Source: a virus. Taken from it: a stretch of 22,057 bases of DNA. The DNA lies in IMG/VR virus record IMGVR_UViG_3300005613_000448, positions 1 through 22,057 of that record, one strand, 5' to 3'. A program made the position numbers and the translations under genes. Positions 3,972 through 21,213 of the stretch are shown in pieces; the first letter of the stretch is position 1; the number at the start of each line of letters is the position of its first letter. A model generated the notes under the pieces. That model worked only from the letters and a program-made list of their open reading frames with translations. It searched no databases and was not told the DNA's origin.

Positions 3972-4462
3972 TTTACATAAGAGCCAGTATTGAAGAAGAC
4001 ATTCCTAACATTTTAGAAAACCTAAGAGACTCAGATGTAGAAGAGTGTCTTATTACTGGTTCTTCCCCAGAGGAAAACTTACGGACAGGGCTGAAAAGCA
4101 AGCTATGTTTTACTGGAATCATAGATGGAACTCCTGAGTTTATGTTCGGGGCAACAAGACACAGCGATACTATTGGAGTCGCATGGTTATTAGGAACAAA
4201 TAAAATAAATGAAAATAAAAGAGACTTTATCAAAACTACGCCGCTTATGTGGAAAGTTATTTCAGGCAGTTATTCGTATCTTACGAACTTCATTCCAAGT
4301 AGCAACAAAAAGTCTATTAGATGGATTGAGTCGTCTGGTGGGGAGTTCAAAGGAGAGGTTGAAGTGAAAGGTAAAAAGATGAAACAGTTCGTCTACGAGG
4401 TTCCTCAAACTGAAGGAGCAAGGTACGCTGGAGCCTATGATTCCAGCAAGGAGAGTTACTAA
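3968..4462 (+). CDS. gp13-like internal protein with GNAT-like fold
   Basis: A 164-residue protein in the position of T7 gp13 (138 residues), an assembly factor for the internal core. MIYIRASIEEDIPNILENL resembles the T7 gp13 start MMTIRPTKSTDFEVF, and the central stretch with FMFGATRHSDTIGVAWLLGT and the later YLTNFIPSSNKKSIRWIESSGG parallel T7 ... LWNYVWVGNTSHIRFLKTIGA. This is the pattern of a degenerate GNAT acetyltransferase fold: beta strand, substrate loop, then N-S-x-R/K-W-I-E-S-x-G. Whether it acetylates anything is unknown; the acetyl-CoA loop (Q/RxxGxG/A) is not evident, so a structural role is more likely. The start overlaps the previous stop (ATGA); a purine-rich agaggaag lies about 12 bases upstream. 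The 3' end overlaps the next gene by 26 bases. Confidence 0.8.
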   Translation: MIYIRASIEEDIPNILENLRDSDVEECLITGSSPEENLRTGLKSKLCFTGIIDGTPEFMFGATRHSDTIGVAWLLGTNKINENKRDFIKTTPLMWKVISGSYSYLTNFIPSSNKKSIRWIESSGGEFKGEVEVKGKKMKQFVYEVPQTEGARYAGAYDSSKESY

Positions 4463-5054
4463 CATTTGCGGAGCAGCATTACCTCTCATTGGTGCTGGTA
4501 TTGGACTTTTCCAGTCAGCGGAAGCTGCTAGAGCTTCTAGAAGAGCAGCAGCAAGAAACATAGCCAGTATCAACCGCTCAACAGCAAACCAACTTTCAGG
4601 AGCCCGTCAACGCTTCCAAGAAGAGAACATGCGTCTTGAAGATGCTATCAGCGCACAAAAGGAAGATGCTGCGAGAGCAAAAGGAGTAGCCTCTGTCTCA
4701 GCAGGTGAGTCAGGTGTTGGTGGTAGAGGTAGAGAGCGTATCCTTGCCGACATTGAAAGGCAAGAAGGTAGGTTCTTAGAGACTATGGAAATGAATAAAA
4801 AGTTCATGGTCAGAGCTAAGGACCAACAAATAAAAGACATAATGGAAACTGGTTTTGGTAAGATAGAAGCAATCAAGGCAAGTATTGCTCCTGGCCCTTC
4901 TCTATTCAGCACAGCCTTATCTATTGCTGGAGCAGTAGCAGGAACTGATGCTTACCTTATGCAAACTACGGGAGCAGGCCTATTTAGTGCTCCTGGTGGA
5001 CTAACAATGCCCAGTTATCCTCTCCCTAACCCCTCGGCATTCTCTGGATTCTAA
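4437..5054 (+). CDS. Internal virion protein gp14-like
   Basis: A 205-residue protein, close to T7 gp14 (196). In T7 this protein is ejected first and forms the outer-membrane channel of the trans-envelope conduit. Seen: a hydrophobic N-terminal segment (ICGAALPLIGAGIGLF, residues 10-25), then a long Ala/Arg/Glu-rich helix with SIN-R-STANQLSGARQRFQEEN, then GVASVSAGESGVGGRGRERI, which matches the T7 gp14 pattern SIRAAIGESMLEGSSMDRI, and finally an Ala/Gly-rich tail. The ATG at 4437 overlaps the previous gene by 26 bases; it is the start that keeps the hydrophobic N-terminus. The next gene begins 3 bases after the stop. Confidence 0.85.
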   Translation: MIPARRVTNICGAALPLIGAGIGLFQSAEAARASRRAAARNIASINRSTANQLSGARQRFQEENMRLEDAISAQKEDAARAKGVASVSAGESGVGGRGRERILADIERQEGRFLETMEMNKKFMVRAKDQQIKDIMETGFGKIEAIKASIAPGPSLFSTALSIAGAVAGTDAYLMQTTGAGLFSAPGGLTMPSYPLPNPSAFSGF

Positions 5055-13846: not shown

Positions 13847-14257
13847 ATGGACATAGAAGATGTAGAAAAAGAACTTGAAAGGATACGGGTAAAGAACCAC
13901 GACATTTCCAACCTTCTAACTATTCACTCAGAACAACTACTAAGTATTATTGAGATGAAGAAGGACATGAATAACAGCTTCACTGAACTCCGAAAGGACA
14001 TTGAATGCGTTATGTTCAGTCTTTCAGGTGGGCTAAAAGGACAAGGTATTATCAATAGGGTTGAGAACTTAGAGGCTTATAAGAAGAGTATTTCAGGATG
14101 GATGAAGGTATTGGGCGCTGCTGTCCTAACTCTTCTCATCAATAAAGGTTGGGAGCTTCTTACATACACCTCAGAACCTGTTTTTGACAACCACCAAGTA
14201 ATAAGAAGTGATGAGAAGTTAGTTGTATCAACAAAACCAGAAGTGATTACAAAATGA
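13847..14257 (+). CDS. Holin-like small membrane protein (gp17.5 position)
   Basis: A 136-residue protein between the fibre and small terminase genes, exactly where T7 has its holin gene 17.5. Residues 1-55 form a charged coiled coil (EDVEKELERIRVKN, SELLS-type heptads), and residues 84-100 (GWMKVLGAAVLTLLINK) form one short membrane span followed by a polar tail. This layout, N-terminal coiled coil then one transmembrane helix, is like XhlA-type lysis-associated proteins rather than T7 17.5 itself. Holin function is inferred from position and topology. A weak aaaggg motif sits upstream; the stop overlaps the next start (ATGA). Confidence 0.6.
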   Translation: MDIEDVEKELERIRVKNHDISNLLTIHSEQLLSIIEMKKDMNNSFTELRKDIECVMFSLSGGLKGQGIINRVENLEAYKKSISGWMKVLGAAVLTLLINKGWELLTYTSEPVFDNHQVIRSDEKLVVSTKPEVITK

Positions 14258-14478
14258 AAAAGAAACAAAAAGAACAAGTAATGGAGGGGTTATTTATCTC
14301 TCTTCTTGACTACTATACTGAACTTATTAGTTCTGGGGATAGGTTATCAGCAGGGGAACTTAGCGCCCTACAAAAACTTCTAACAGATAATAGTATCAAT
14401 GCTGACTTTACCTCAGTAGAAGAGGGAACCACAGCTTCGGACTTCTTACGCTCTTTACCTTTCCTAGATGAAGAATAG
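14254..14478 (+). CDS. terS: Terminase small subunit (T7 gp18-like)
   Basis: A 74-residue protein just upstream of and overlapping the large terminase; T7 gp18 is 89. It recognises the concatemer for packaging and stimulates the motor. Seen: N-terminal helix (EQVMEGLFISLLDYYTELI), then SAGELSALQKLLTDNSINADF, then an acidic tail EEGTTASDFLRSLPFLDEE. The helix-turn-helix-like segment followed by a short acidic tail is what I recall for small terminases of T7-like environmental podoviruses. Couplings: ATGA with the upstream gene, an 11-base overlap with terL. Confidence 0.8.
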   Translation: MKKKQKEQVMEGLFISLLDYYTELISSGDRLSAGELSALQKLLTDNSINADFTSVEEGTTASDFLRSLPFLDEE

Positions 14479-16339
14479 TAAAACCGTATTAGAGTATAAG
14501 GAACTTTTCAACCTCAAGAATGTCGCAGCACTTACTTGGGAACACTTGAACCTTCCTTCACCTACCCCCATCCAATACGACATCATCGAATGCCTTGAGG
14601 GTATTCTTCGTCCAGTATTAGGTCTGAAAAACTCTGATAAATGGTTTGATAAGTTCCCAAATGCCACAATAGTAAAAGATAATAAGAGAACCCCAACCAA
14701 TAGGTTCATTCTTCAGGCAGCTAGAGGTGTGGGAAAGAGTATTATTACTGGCTCTCTTGTTCCTTGGTTGCTTGCCGTAAACCCTGACCTGAACATTTTA
14801 GTGGTATCAGCTTCTCAGAACAAGGCTACTGACTTCTCTACTTTCTCTAAAAGACTTATTGTAGAGATGCCTATTTATCAACCTCTTATTGCTGACACAC
14901 AAAGAGGGCAAAGATGGTCTAACATTTCATTTGATGTTCGTCCAGCAGGTGTAGACCAAGCTCCATCAGTTCGTAGTGTAACTATTGGTGGAACTCTTAC
15001 AGGGGGTAGAGCAGACATTATTATTTGTGATGATGGTGAGACTCCTAATACCTCGGATACTCAGACTGCTAGACTAAAACTTCAAGAAAGAGTAAAAGAG
15101 TTTGACGCTGTTCTCAAGCCAAATGGATGTATTATCTATCTAGGAACTCCACAAGTAGAGGATAGTCTTTACAATGTTCTCACGAATAGGGGTTACAAGA
15201 AGATTATCTGGCCTGGAAGGTTCCCAGACAGCAAGTGGATAGAGAACAATGGACCCTACTTAGCACCATTCATAGCAAAACAAATAGAGGAAGACACTTC
15301 TTTACAGTCTGGTGGTGGTCTTGATGGCTCTCTTGGTGCCCCTACTAACCCTCTAATGTTCTCTGAGGAAGACCTACAAGAGCGAGAAGCATCTTATGGT
15401 AGGTCGGGGTTCGCTCTTCAGTACCTATTAGATACTACCCTATCTGACCAGAACAAGTTCCCATTGAAGTTGTCTGACTTTATTGTGATGGACATAGACA
15501 AAGACCTTGCCCCTGAGCGTCCTGTGTGGGGCTCTGACGCATCCTTAGCTCTTACTGATGTAGATAGTGTTGGACTCAAGGGAGACCGCTTCTACAGGGC
15601 TTACAGAAGCGTGGGGGAGATGCTGCCTTATCGTGGTTCAGTTCTCGCTATTGACCCAGCAGGTATGGGTGAGGATGAGCTTGCCTATGCTGTGGTAAAG
15701 CAACTAAATGGATACTTATACATAACTGCTTGTAATGGTCTCAAAGGAGGGTTTGAAGAGAAGAACTTAGAGTTCCTAGCTGACCTGGCAAAAGAACATA
15801 AAATAACTTCCGTCATTATCGAAAAGAACTTTGGTGGTGGCATGTTCACCTCACTATTTACACCAGTTCTAACAAGAAAGCATAAGTGTGCCATAGAGGA
15901 AGTAACATCTAGCAAGCAAAAAGAACTTCGTATTATTGGTTGTCTCGAACCTCTTCTCAACCAGCATAGACTTGTTGTTGATAAGAATGTTATTATTGAG
16001 GACAATAAGAAGGACTGGCACGACAAGAAGGGACACCTCAGAAAGTTGTTCTATCAACTAACTCGTATCAGTAAGGATAAAGGTTCATTGGTTCACGATG
16101 ACCGCCTAGATGCTTTATCTATGGCATGTCAATACTGGTTAGATGCTGCTAAGTTAGACGCCAATAAGCAGATAGATAGTAGAACCAGAAATGCCTATAT
16201 GAAAGAGCTAAAAGACACTCTAAATGCCCCTATTGGGCGTAAAATAGACAGGTATAAGCGCGACCTTCAACGTGCTAAAGATAGAGGGGAACGTCCTTCT
16301 ATGAAACAGCGAAAGCCCAGAGGAAACTGGCTCAAATAA
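14468..16339 (+). CDS. terL: Terminase large subunit (T7 gp19-like packaging ATPase/nuclease)
   Basis: A 623-residue motor protein; T7 gp19 is 586. It pumps DNA into the prohead and cuts the concatemer. ATPase domain: Walker A ARGVGKS at 85-91 (K90), Walker B IIICDD at 184-189 with catalytic E191, coupling motif YLGTPQ at 224-229. Nuclease domain, RNase H fold: LAIDPAGMGEDE with D396, IIEKNFGGGMF with E452, and HDDRLDALSMA at 543-553 with D544, D545 and D548. All catalytic positions look intact. The ATG at 14468 sits inside the end of terS; no Shine-Dalgarno, so it is probably coupled. The C-terminus is very basic (RKIDRYKRDLQRAKDRG and onward), as in relatives. Confidence 0.97.
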   Translation: MKNSKTVLEYKELFNLKNVAALTWEHLNLPSPTPIQYDIIECLEGILRPVLGLKNSDKWFDKFPNATIVKDNKRTPTNRFILQAARGVGKSIITGSLVPWLLAVNPDLNILVVSASQNKATDFSTFSKRLIVEMPIYQPLIADTQRGQRWSNISFDVRPAGVDQAPSVRSVTIGGTLTGGRADIIICDDGETPNTSDTQTARLKLQERVKEFDAVLKPNGCIIYLGTPQVEDSLYNVLTNRGYKKIIWPGRFPDSKWIENNGPYLAPFIAKQIEEDTSLQSGGGLDGSLGAPTNPLMFSEEDLQEREASYGRSGFALQYLLDTTLSDQNKFPLKLSDFIVMDIDKDLAPERPVWGSDASLALTDVDSVGLKGDRFYRAYRSVGEMLPYRGSVLAIDPAGMGEDELAYAVVKQLNGYLYITACNGLKGGFEEKNLEFLADLAKEHKITSVIIEKNFGGGMFTSLFTPVLTRKHKCAIEEVTSSKQKELRIIGCLEPLLNQHRLVVDKNVIIEDNKKDWHDKKGHLRKLFYQLTRISKDKGSLVHDDRLDALSMACQYWLDAAKLDANKQIDSRTRNAYMKELKDTLNAPIGRKIDRYKRDLQRAKDRGERPSMKQRKPRGNWLK

Positions 16340-19013: not shown

Positions 19014-19235
19014 ATGATTTTACAGGGCAATTATGGTAACTTTGAAATACCTATTCCAGAAGGTTATGAGGTAGTATCTACTGGAAGTATTATTCTAGAT
19101 GGTGACTTGTTCTTAGATGGGGGTATAGAGTTCTACCCAGAGAGAAATCTTATAGAATGGAAAGCTTTTCTCAGTGCTGACCTAGTACAACGAACAGTAA
19201 GTAGTGAAATGCTTATTATTAGGAGTATACCCTGA
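19014..19235 (+). CDS. Small protein of unknown function after the fibre gene
   Basis: A 73-residue protein beginning 2 bases after the fibre stop. It is beta-prone and acidic (GNFEIPIPEGYEVVSTGSII, then DLFLDGGIEFYPERNLIEW). aaggag at 18996-19001 lies 12 bases upstream, one of the few Shine-Dalgarno-like motifs in the window. It may be a fibre cap or accessory subunit by position only. It is the last gene before the long non-coding region. Confidence 0.6.
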   Translation: MILQGNYGNFEIPIPEGYEVVSTGSIILDGDLFLDGGIEFYPERNLIEWKAFLSADLVQRTVSSEMLIIRSIP

Positions 19236-19241
19236 GAGCTC

Positions 19242-19330
19242 CTGTAAGCCGTTCTGAGAGAGGTATAGTATAAACACGACTCAGTACTCTCATAAAGACT
19301 AAAATGAGCATACACGAGCTTACAGATGGC
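19242..19330 (+). repeat. Paired element, copy 1 (tatagtata box in an inverted repeat)
   Basis: Contains ggtatagtataaaca (19262-19276) and gcttacagatggc (19318-19330), 56 bases apart start to start, exactly as in copy 2. An 8-bp outer stem pairs ctgtaagc (19242-19249) with gcttacag (19318-19325). Inner pairings tgagag (19255-19260) / ctctca (19287-19292), or ctcat / atgag (19289-19308), are possible. Could be a promoter for phage or host polymerase, an origin or a structured RNA; the sequence does not decide. Confidence 0.7.
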
Positions 19331-19471
19331 ATACAGGAGATACTGGTGAATCCTCTACCTACAAACATACAAAGATACAAATAATAAAGTGCTGGGAAAT
19401 AAATAACAAAATGCCCAGTGAAAATACTAACAATAAAACTATAATAGGACGGTCAGGTGGGAGTTCAGAAC

Positions 19472-19540
19472 TAGTAGCTCTAATAAAACTACATACAAAT
19501 GACCAGCTTAGAACTTAGTAGCTTAGAGGAAACTACATAC
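19472..19540. repeat. Diverged 25-bp direct repeat
   Basis: Copies at 19472-19496 and 19516-19540 (offset 44) both begin tagtagct and end aaactacatac; 20 of 25 positions agree. Similarity continues weakly on both sides (agaac before; a gac...gc pattern after), so this looks like an old tandem duplication of about 44 bases. Confidence 0.8.
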
Positions 19541-19561
19541 TATGACTCCTGCTCTATTGTA

Positions 19562-19583
19562 GACGCTCCTTTGGGGTCGCGTC
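19562..19583 (+). terminator. GC-rich hairpin, possible late-operon terminator
   Basis: gacgc (19562-19566) pairs with gcgtc (19579-19583), with a further cc/gg pair inside. It is conspicuously GC-rich against AT-rich surroundings and lies about 330 bases after the last late gene. The loop core ctttgggg recalls the capsid hairpin (gctttggt). No T-tract follows, so the terminator call is tentative. Confidence 0.4.
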
Positions 19584-19650
19584 TTGGTAAATCTGAATAG
19601 TTATTATGAAATGGTTAGTATAGACTAGTTGAGAATAGAGTTTTAGGCGA

Positions 19651-19690
19651 GGTGGAGTTAGGTTGGAGTTAGTTATGGTTTTTATTTTGG
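19651..19690. repeat. G/T-rich block related to the 20336 block
   Basis: ggtggagttaggtt followed by ggagttagttatggttttta. It resembles 20336-20348 (ggtggagttggtt) as a direct repeat, and it is complementary in part to the 21-base tandem unit (gttatgg against ccataac; agttagt against actaact). Confidence 0.6.
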
Positions 19691-19816
19691 AATGAAAAAT
19701 TCTTCCCAGTTGTGTGAAGGGAAACTTATAAACAAGAAATCAAAAATACCCCCATACCCACCTTTATTTACACCATTTCCCAACTAACTTTCTCTAAACT
19801 TATAACTTATCATGCC

Positions 19817-19860
19817 TAATGAGAGTTCTATAAAGAGGAAGCCTTACCCATCTCTCATTA
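19817..19860 (+). terminator. 9-bp hairpin followed by T-rich tract
   Basis: taatgagag (19817-19825) pairs perfectly with ctctcatta (19852-19860) across a 26-base loop; ccttttagtttctttc follows. Could be a terminator or a processed RNA structure. Confidence 0.4.
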
Positions 19861-19915
19861 CCTTTTAGTTTCTTTCATTCTATTCCCATTCAATAGTAAC
19901 AGATACAATAGAGAG

Positions 19916-19942
19916 AAACAATAGAGAGACATAGTAATAATA
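19916..19942 (+). repeat. Long-range inverted repeat, left arm
   Basis: Reads aaacaatagagaga then catagtaataata. The complement of 20708-20736 is the same except for two extra bases (ta) in the middle. A partial direct duplication, acaatagagaga, precedes it at 19905. Confidence 0.85.
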
Positions 19943-19984
19943 GATAACCTATTCCCAGTATCTAATAAATAACTAGTATCCTTT

Positions 19985-20089
19985 GTAAGCTCTTCTAAGG
20001 CTCTCTAAGGGGGGTATAGTATAAACATGAGTACTGAGTTATGTTTTATTAGAAATGCTCTTAGAATAGCTTACAGGTGGCTTAGAGAG
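19985..20089 (+). repeat. Paired element, copy 2 (tatagtata box, pseudoknot-like pairing)
   Basis: Contains ggtatagtataaaca (20013-20027) and gcttacaggtggc (20069-20081), 56 bases apart as in copy 1. gtaagctcttctaag (19985-19999) pairs with cttagaatagcttac (20060-20074) with one mismatch, and ctctctaag (20001-20009) pairs perfectly with cttagagag (20081-20089). The two pairings cross, the arrangement of a pseudoknot if transcribed. tatagt is also a fair sigma-70 -10 hexamer, but no good -35 is present. Confidence 0.75.
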
Positions 20090-20123
20090 GACGTTATACT
20101 GTTCTAACATACATCCTTTCATC

Positions 20124-20173
20124 TACTCCCAACTAATAAAGATGGGGAGTAAGAACTCTTCTTGGAACTTACT
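20124..20173 (+). promoter_or_regulatory. Two mutually exclusive hairpins
   Basis: tactccc (20124-20130) can pair with gggagta (20145-20151), while gagtaag (20147-20153) can pair with cttactc (20167-20173). The shared gagta means only one can form, as in attenuators. No leader peptide or ligand domain is recognised. Confidence 0.35.
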
Positions 20174-20221
20174 CTTAGTTTCTCTGAGTTAGGTAGGATA
20201 AGCTGAGAGTTGGGTGAGAGA

Positions 20222-20291
20222 AAATACCTAATTCTAGAATAAAGGGTGTTTAGCGACGACAACAGGCCAAATAAATGCATTTTAGGTATTT
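20222..20291. repeat. 10-bp inverted repeat
   Basis: aaatacctaa (20222-20231) and ttaggtattt (20282-20291) are perfect complements 50 bases apart. The interval holds a locally GC-richer segment, gcgacgacaacaggcc. Confidence 0.55.
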
Positions 20292-20420
20292 GAAATAAGG
20301 TTAGAAATAGGTTTTTAGAGGGGGTTTTTAGTTTTGGTGGAGTTGGTTTTGTGTTTATTTTTGTTTTTGGGAGTTGGTTTGAAATTATGTTGGTTATTTT
20401 TGAGTTCTAATTTTTTATTT
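20292..20420. other. G/T-rich, strand-asymmetric block
   Basis: About 130 bases almost free of C on the + strand. It includes gagttggtt twice (20340-20348, 20371-20379), complementary to aaccaactc (20560-20568), and ttggttat (20390-20397), complementary to ataaccaa in each 21-base unit just downstream. A long imperfect hairpin with the C/A-rich array is possible. Confidence 0.7.
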
Positions 20421-20426
20421 ATAACT

Positions 20427-20552
20427 AGCTCTAACTAACCATAACCAAGCTCTAACTAACCATAACCAAGCTCTAACTAACCATAACCAAGCTCTAACTA
20501 ACCATAACCAAGCTCTAACTAACCATAACCAAGCTCTAACTAACCAAGACCA
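20427..20552. repeat. 21-bp tandem repeat array
   Basis: Five identical 21-base units (agctctaactaa followed by ccataacca) start at 20427, 20448, 20469, 20490 and 20511, then a sixth (20532-20552) with changes near its end. Degenerate C/A-rich copies continue to about 20610. 21 bases is two helical turns, so bound proteins would line up on one face, as with iterons. Short repeats of another sequence also lie near the terminal repeat of T7. Confidence 0.95.
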
Positions 20553-20707
20553 AGCCTAGAACCAACTCTAACCAACCATTACCAGCAATAAATAAAATAG
20601 ACCAACCATGCTCAGCAACTAGTATCTAACCTCTCTATGAATAGAATGATAATGCTGGAGAAGTAGTGGGTATGTATGTATGTAATGTATTGTATGTCTC
20701 TCTCTAG

Positions 20708-20736
20708 TATTATTACTATGTATCTCTCTATTGTTT
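20708..20736 (-). repeat. Long-range inverted repeat, right arm
   Basis: Complement of the arm at 19916-19942: tattattactatg then tatctctctattgttt. Together the arms enclose paired element copy 2, the hairpins, the G/T block and the 21-base array. Confidence 0.85.
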
Positions 20737-20811
20737 TTGTTACTTTTGTTATTTTGTCTCCTCTTCTTTAGGGGCGAATTTATTTTATTTCTTGTTTTTC
20801 TTGTTTGAGTT

Positions 20812-21213
20812 ATGTCTAAATACCTTCCAGTCTTTTTGTTTGTCTTCTTAGTTGGTTGTTCTGTTATTCCTAGTGACTCTTCTTACCTGCCAAATTTACA
20901 GGTGGGGGAAAATAGTATAGACTTGATGGCTTCTACTGAGTCTATAGTATCCTCTCCTGTATTACATAGTGTTCCTTGGTTGTCTCCTTGGTTGTCTCTA
21001 TTAGGACTTGGACTACCTTTGCTTAGGAGAGGTTCCCGAAAGAAGATAGGTGGCGCTATGAAAAGTGTGATTCCTTATGATGGGAAGATAGACTTAGTAT
21101 CTTTCCTAAAAGAGTTTCTTGAGGCTTATGCTCTACTTATACAAAAAGAGGCCAGTACCAAAAGCGGGGAAAGCAACCCTCAACCCCGTGAAAATAAAAA
21201 GAATCTTTTATGA
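20812..21213 (+). CDS. Predicted lipoprotein with second hydrophobic segment
   Basis: A 133-residue protein. Lys-3 and a hydrophobic stretch end in the lipobox LVGC (13-16), so Cys-16 should be lipidated; the +2 residue is Ser, not Asp, which favours the outer membrane. A second hydrophobic segment at 55-71 (PWLSPWLSLLGLGLPLL) is followed by RRGSRKK, and the C-terminus is helical then polar. T7 spanin genes 18.5/18.7 are missing from their usual place next to the terminase here, so a spanin-type lysis protein is one possibility; a superinfection-exclusion lipoprotein is another. I do not recognise the family. The start has no good Shine-Dalgarno; the stop overlaps the next start (ATGA). Confidence 0.75.
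   Translation: MSKYLPVFLFVFLVGCSVIPSDSSYLPNLQVGENSIDLMASTESIVSSPVLHSVPWLSPWLSLLGLGLPLLRRGSRKKIGGAMKSVIPYDGKIDLVSFLKEFLEAYALLIQKEASTKSGESNPQPRENKKNLL

What the first reader, a model, noticed from the sequence alone, without database searches (positions are those of the whole stretch)
19242..20089. Two copies of an undescribed structured element with fixed internal spacing
The 15-mer ggtatagtataaaca and the box gcttacag(a/g)tggc both occur twice and are exactly 56 bases apart each time, although the 41 bases between them are barely similar. Each copy is bracketed by an inverted repeat (gtaagc...gcttac), and the outer pair c-g in copy 1 becomes t-g in copy 2, a pairing-preserving change. Conserved boxes, conserved spacing and a retained stem point to selection on an RNA or on a protein-bound DNA structure. 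Candidates are a phage small RNA, a promoter/attenuator pair or a replication origin.
Basis: partly seen in the sequence, partly recalled or inferred. Interest (0 to 1): 0.75.

Follow-up and report, generated by a model that had tools for sequence, protein, structure and literature searches.

The report
Phased DNA-site arrays in phages
Two copies of a roughly 100-base DNA element made of regularly spaced protein-docking sites lie in a phage genome, and the same layout recurs in the gaps between genes of many unrelated phages, often beside DNA-copying genes, so it is probably part of a replication start or control region rather than an RNA.

Summary
In detail: GGTATAGTATAAACA and GCTTACAGRTGGC each occur twice, 56 bases apart both times. 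The 'conserved RNA stem' is not supported. GTAAGC sits 10 bp nearer the box in copy 1 than in copy 2, so the two 5' arms are not homologous positions. Each element is a DNA array: three TSTAAG half-sites, a core, then three inverted CTTASA half-sites, with start-to-start spacing 10,10 | 56 | 10,11 in both copies. A blind six-site search picks these two placements first (40 and 39 of 48; shuffles at most 36). A pattern made only of this layout found 21 and 13 loci in IMG/VR; a reversed control of the second pattern found 0, and 85,000 prokaryote genomes gave 2. The T7-like phage L202 has a third homologue directly after its terminase gene, with the core box in register. Arrays are mostly intergenic and enriched beside T7-type replication genes (13 of 32 loci against 0 of 98 controls). 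In two unrelated phages DnaA-box clusters sit next to or between arrays, and T5-like phages carry one in their terminal repeats. Best reading: a multi-site protein-DNA complex, most likely at a replication-origin region. The binding protein and the function are not proven.

The parts
19233..19258 (+). element 1, 5' arm: half-sites TGAGAG (19233), TGTAAG (19243), TCTGAG (19253), 10-bp spaced; the first is degenerate
   Evidence: in register (offset 751) with element 2
19262..19276 (+). element 1 core box GGTATAGTATAAACA
19309..19335 (-). element 1, 3' arm: inverse half-sites CATACA (19309), CTTACA (19319), CATACA (19330), spacing 10 and 11
19984..20009 (+). element 2, 5' arm: TGTAAG (19984), TCTAAG (19994), TCTAAG (20004), 10-bp spaced
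20013..20027 (+). element 2 core box GGTATAGTATAAACA
   Evidence: aligned with the L202 core, C of AAAC 22 nt from start of half-site 3 in both
20060..20086 (-). element 2, 3' arm: CTTAGA (20060), CTTACA (20070), CTTAGA (20081), spacing 10 and 11
19236..20811 (.). 1.6-kb stretch without a convincing gene, downstream of the T7-like late genes, that holds both elements

Best explanation
Each copy is a DNA element of about 100 bp, not an RNA. Two groups of three short half-sites (consensus YTSTAAGS) point toward each other, with sites about one helical turn apart within a group and 56 bp between the inner sites, flanking a variable core. SHOWN: the layout, its in-register duplication, and its recurrence in other phages between genes, mostly next to replication genes or in large noncoding or terminal-repeat regions. 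INFERRED: an oligomerising DNA-binding protein occupies the phased sites on one face of the helix and wraps or bends the DNA. INFERRED: in most of these phages the complex marks a replication-origin/initiation region. Here, two such arrays 751 bp apart sit in the main noncoding region of a T7-like phage. The binding protein is unknown.
For: The blind six-site scan picks exactly these two placements. Layout-only patterns found 21 and 13 IMG/VR loci; the reversed control of the second pattern found 0, and the same pattern found 2 in genome contigs. Most hits are intergenic. L202 and the L197/L200/L207/L214 group carry the array within about 0.5 kb downstream of a T7-like TerL. T7-type replication genes occur in 13 of 32 array loci against 0 of 98 control loci. 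In five loci the array lies upstream of a T7-like primase gene. In 15 elements found by the 3' module alone, weak 5' half-sites peak near -75, -55 and -46 from the module, close to the window's phase. Phage VCPH has two arrays 656 bp apart with three of the eight DnaA boxes seen in the 120 kb scanned between them; J2-1 has four of twelve within 250 bp of an array.
Against: No DnaA box lies in the window. GC-skew extremes coincide with arrays in only some records. Some arrays lie beside structural genes (L209, L213). No binding protein was identified. Arrays in early-gene regions would also fit transcription-control sites. Exact TSTAAG doublets were absent from the TerL-found relatives; they appear only in loci found with the pattern itself. 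Related loci were collected partly with patterns that impose some of the spacing.
Confidence: 0.45

Rival explanations
1. Packaging or concatemer-processing site: the counterpart of the short-repeat arrays that flank the terminal repeat of T7, T3 and SP6, bound by terminase or a maturation factor; the two copies would flank the terminal repeat.
For: T7 and T3 have CCTAAAG-type repeats and SP6 CCTTAG-type repeats next to the terminal repeat. Window, L202 and the L207 group carry arrays downstream of TerL, and L202 and L207 have a T7-type terminal-repeat start motif 600-800 bp farther on. T5-like phages phiR2-01, Sepoy and Slocum carry the module inside annotated terminal repeats.
Against: A profile of the terminal-repeat start from 12 phages finds nothing in the window (best 2.6 bits; members score 24-38). 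T7 sites all point one way and are spaced about 13 bp. Many arrays are far from terminases, beside replication or other genes.
Confidence: 0.22
2. Operator/promoter region: the core box is a host-RNA-polymerase -10 region and the arrays are sites for a phage regulator of early or replication genes.
For: The same 15-mer lies in two good sigma-70-type promoters in L054. VCPH has TATAGTATAAGCATG near an array. Arrays precede primase genes in five loci and lie among small early-type genes in T5-like and other large phages.
Against: No -35-like hexamer at the right distance in either window copy; no gene starts soon after either copy; the core differs in other phages.
Confidence: 0.18
3. A structured RNA (small RNA, leader or attenuator).
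For: Both copies can fold. The five primase-upstream elements can form hairpins with some compensating changes.
Against: Stem not in register between copies; folds differ. No Rfam match to the window, and nothing on the homologues but two miRNA-family matches far below their cut-offs. RNAalifold on five related elements gives only -15.8 kcal/mol. Direct repetition at one helical turn within an arm is not expected of an RNA stem.
Confidence: 0.1

Closest known systems
T7/T3/SP6 short-repeat arrays flanking the terminal repeat
   Same: short TAAG/CTTAG-type sites repeated in noncoding DNA downstream of the late genes of T7-like phages
   Different: sites in one orientation, about 13 bp apart in T7, no convergent six-site layout; two copies 751 bp apart here; terminal repeat not located in the window
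Iteron-type replication origins (plasmid RepA iterons, PLE satellite origin in PMC7145576)
   Same: repeated short sites for an initiator in a noncoding region, sometimes with DnaA boxes
   Different: two convergent groups of half-sites at helical spacing; no cognate initiator gene recognised
parC of type II plasmid partition loci (recalled from general knowledge, not tested)
   Same: two groups of 10-11-bp repeats flanking a core, bound by an oligomer that wraps DNA
   Different: parC repeats are recalled as direct, not convergent; no parM/parR genes were looked for

Membership tests
T7-type short-repeat arrays | arrays next to a mapped terminal repeat | tested here: inconclusive
   profile of the repeat start from 12 phages finds no site in the window, but virion ends are unknown and the motif may have diverged
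T7-type short-repeat arrays | CCTAAAG-type repeats in one orientation | tested here: not met
   half-sites YTSTAAGS in convergent triplets against T7
replication origin with initiator sites | repeated phased sites in noncoding DNA | tested here: met
replication origin with initiator sites | host DnaA boxes nearby (not required if a phage initiator is used) | tested here: not met
   none in the window; present beside arrays in VCPH and J2-1
replication origin with initiator sites | replication starts there | not testable with these tools
   needs fork mapping; GC skew gave a mixed picture
known Rfam RNA | match to a covariance model | tested here: not met
conserved RNA stem | stem arms at homologous positions in both copies | tested here: not met
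   5' arm offset 741, element offset 751
sigma-70 promoter | -10 and -35 hexamers about 17 bp apart | tested here: not met
   TATAGT present, no -35-like hexamer in either copy (read from the sequence)

The most novel reading that the evidence does not exclude
A so far undescribed cis-element shared by unrelated lytic phages (T7-like, T5-like, Herelleviridae, Ounavirinae, Vequintavirinae and jumbo phages): convergent, helically phased TAAG arrays read by one conserved phage or host protein and marking their replication origins.
Probability: 0.3. Interest if true: 0.85.

Novelty: new variant of a known kind. Interest (0 to 1): 0.6.

Why it matters
If the arrays mark origins, they give a sequence handle on where many lytic phages, including large ones, start copying their DNA, and a way to find the protein that reads the sites. 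The same short module in phages that share little else points to a common host or phage factor not recognised in the annotations and open-access papers examined here.

Tried and rejected
(1) The 15-mer alone in IMG/VR: 98 hits, about what chance gives; only the window's copies have the second box, and L054 is a pair of sigma-70-type promoters. (2) 15-mer plus GCTTACAG at a free gap of 30-60: no hit. (3) Close relatives by TerL: none above 51% identity; no TSTAAG doublets in those found by TerL alone. (4) Paired-block repeats in relatives: nothing with this layout, mostly tail-fibre-type repeats. (5) Terminal repeat between the two copies, suggested by an ACCCCCATA and an inverted TAACAGATA motif: not supported by a 12-phage profile, so dropped. 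(6) Rfam: nothing in the window; on homologues only two miRNA models far below their cut-offs in L197. (7) Literature: no paper found describing the module or T5 origins with DnaA boxes; subscription journals are not held. (8) GC skew as an origin test: mixed.

Full report
CONTEXT. The window is a fragment of a T7-like phage: head protein, tail tube A and B, internal virion protein, small and large terminase (14254-16339), fibres. Its TerL is at most 48% identical to annotated phages listed and at most 51% to IMG/VR contigs. Both elements lie in a 1.6-kb stretch without a convincing gene (19236-20811).

OBSERVATION. The boxes, the copy number, the 56-base distance and the inverted repeats are as described. 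The inverted repeat is not one conserved stem. Direct alignment puts every matching position of copy 2 at +751, but GTAAGC of copy 2 (19985) is at +741 from GTAAGC of copy 1 (19244): it is the neighbouring repeat.

ANATOMY. Each arm holds three hexamers. 5' arms: TGAGAG, TGTAAG, TCTGAG (19233, 19243, 19253) and TGTAAG, TCTAAG, TCTAAG (19984, 19994, 20004). 3' arms, inverted: CATACA, CTTACA, CATACA (19309, 19319, 19330) and CTTAGA, CTTACA, CTTAGA (20060, 20070, 20081). A search over six 8-mers (three direct, three inverse, spacing 10 or 11, free gap, free consensus) found these two placements as the best of the region, with the same spacing 10,10,56,10,11 and scores 40 and 39 of 48; 40 shuffles and 1200-bp segments of the rest of the window reached at most 36.

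HOMOLOGUES. A pattern built only from the layout, with no core sequence, gave 21 IMG/VR loci; a second gave 13. The second pattern read backwards gave none and, forwards, only two hits in 257 Gb of bacterial and archaeal genomes. Chance hits remain among the 34 (for instance L215, L216, L228 and L229 inside long reading frames). L202 has the array directly behind TerL (TerL ends at 4405; array about 4400-4505), and its core GATATCTAGGAAAACATGAGCCATGAGTC aligns with GGTATAGTATAAACATGAGTACTGAGTTA of copy 2; the C of AAAC is 22 nt from the start of half-site 3 in both. The L197/L200/L207/L214 group has it about 0.45-0.55 kb downstream of TerL. Five loci (L225, L227, L230, L231, L233) carry it upstream of a T7-like primase; in L230 the gene before it encodes a gp2.5-like single-strand-binding protein. 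T7-type replication genes are present in 13 of 32 array loci and 0 of 98 control loci; T7-type TerL in 5 of 32 and 1 of 98. Several of the 13 are close relatives of each other, so the number of independent cases is smaller.

WIDER OCCURRENCE. The 3' module (CTTAGAATGGCTTACAGNGCGTT type) matches 102 annotated phage records, with no gene annotated under the match in most listed rows: T5-like phages, Lactobacillus Herelleviridae, RaK2/K64-1, XaC1, Wellington, ABPH49, J2-1, Colwellia 9A. In phiR2-01, Sepoy and Slocum it lies in annotated terminal repeats. In 15 elements found by this module alone, weak 5' half-sites fall in separate peaks near -75, -55 and -46 bp, close to the -76, -66, -56 of the window copy 2, with few or none at -65 to -57. 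Genomes often hold further module copies within 1-2 kb. VCPH has two arrays at 116932 and 117588 with DnaA boxes at 117416, 117441 and 117541 between them (8 boxes in the 120 kb scanned); J2-1 has four of its 12 boxes at 82417-82582 beside the array at 82341. The window has none.

MECHANISM. Direct repetition at one helical turn in both arms, inverted symmetry and a variable core are what a protein oligomer bound to one face of bent or wrapped DNA would select; an RNA hairpin would not select direct repeats inside an arm. Position next to replication genes and DnaA clusters favours a replication-origin region; position after TerL and inside terminal repeats favours a role at genome ends; both may hold if origins lie near the ends. 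This step is inference, and no binding protein is known.

LIMITS. Related loci were gathered partly with patterns that fix some spacings; the unbiased support is (5' arm). In one search, spacings of 10 or 11 between 5' TAAG words occur in 8 of the 13 viral loci. No terminal repeat could be placed in the window. GC skew is inconclusive. The paper library holds open-access work only, so an existing description in a subscription journal cannot be excluded.

Noticed in passing
window 20427-20552: Tandem array of a 21-bp unit AGCTCTAACTAACCATAACCA, partly inverted relative to 19657-19680.
   Followed up: no
window 19891-19942 and 20708-20748: Long imperfect inverted repeats (CAATAGTAACAGATACAATAGAGAG / CTCTCTATTGTTTTTGTTAC); the minus-strand copy resembles the T7 sequence at the right end of its terminal repeat (GTCTCTCTGTGTCCCTATCTGTTAC).
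   Followed up: partly
L101 10035, L102 2204, L103 2820, L202 5108, L207 3022: Motif AAAAATSTGARTGGGTA, found at the terminal-repeat start of T7, T3, gh-1 and HTVC019P, with CCCCC about 25 nt inside; absent from the window.
   Followed up: yes
L112 (LUZ100) 37071-37100: The same motif suggests that the annotated terminal repeat of LUZ100 starts about 12 bp too late.
   Followed up: no
L101 10107-10601, L102 2280-2620: Another set of repeats in noncoding DNA after TerL: TTTGCAACATCCTA units and GTCGTAAGTC..GACTTAC dyads.
   Followed up: partly
L226 1850-2030: The array's 3' module runs on as about 10-bp units CTTAAAATGG CTTAGAATGG CTTACAGGGCG TTTTAGAGC; this stretch matches 487 phage records at E up to 1.
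   Followed up: partly
window 20812-21213: Small reading frame whose product begins like a lipoprotein (MSKYLPVFLFVFLVGC); possible spanin, no family match.
   Followed up: no
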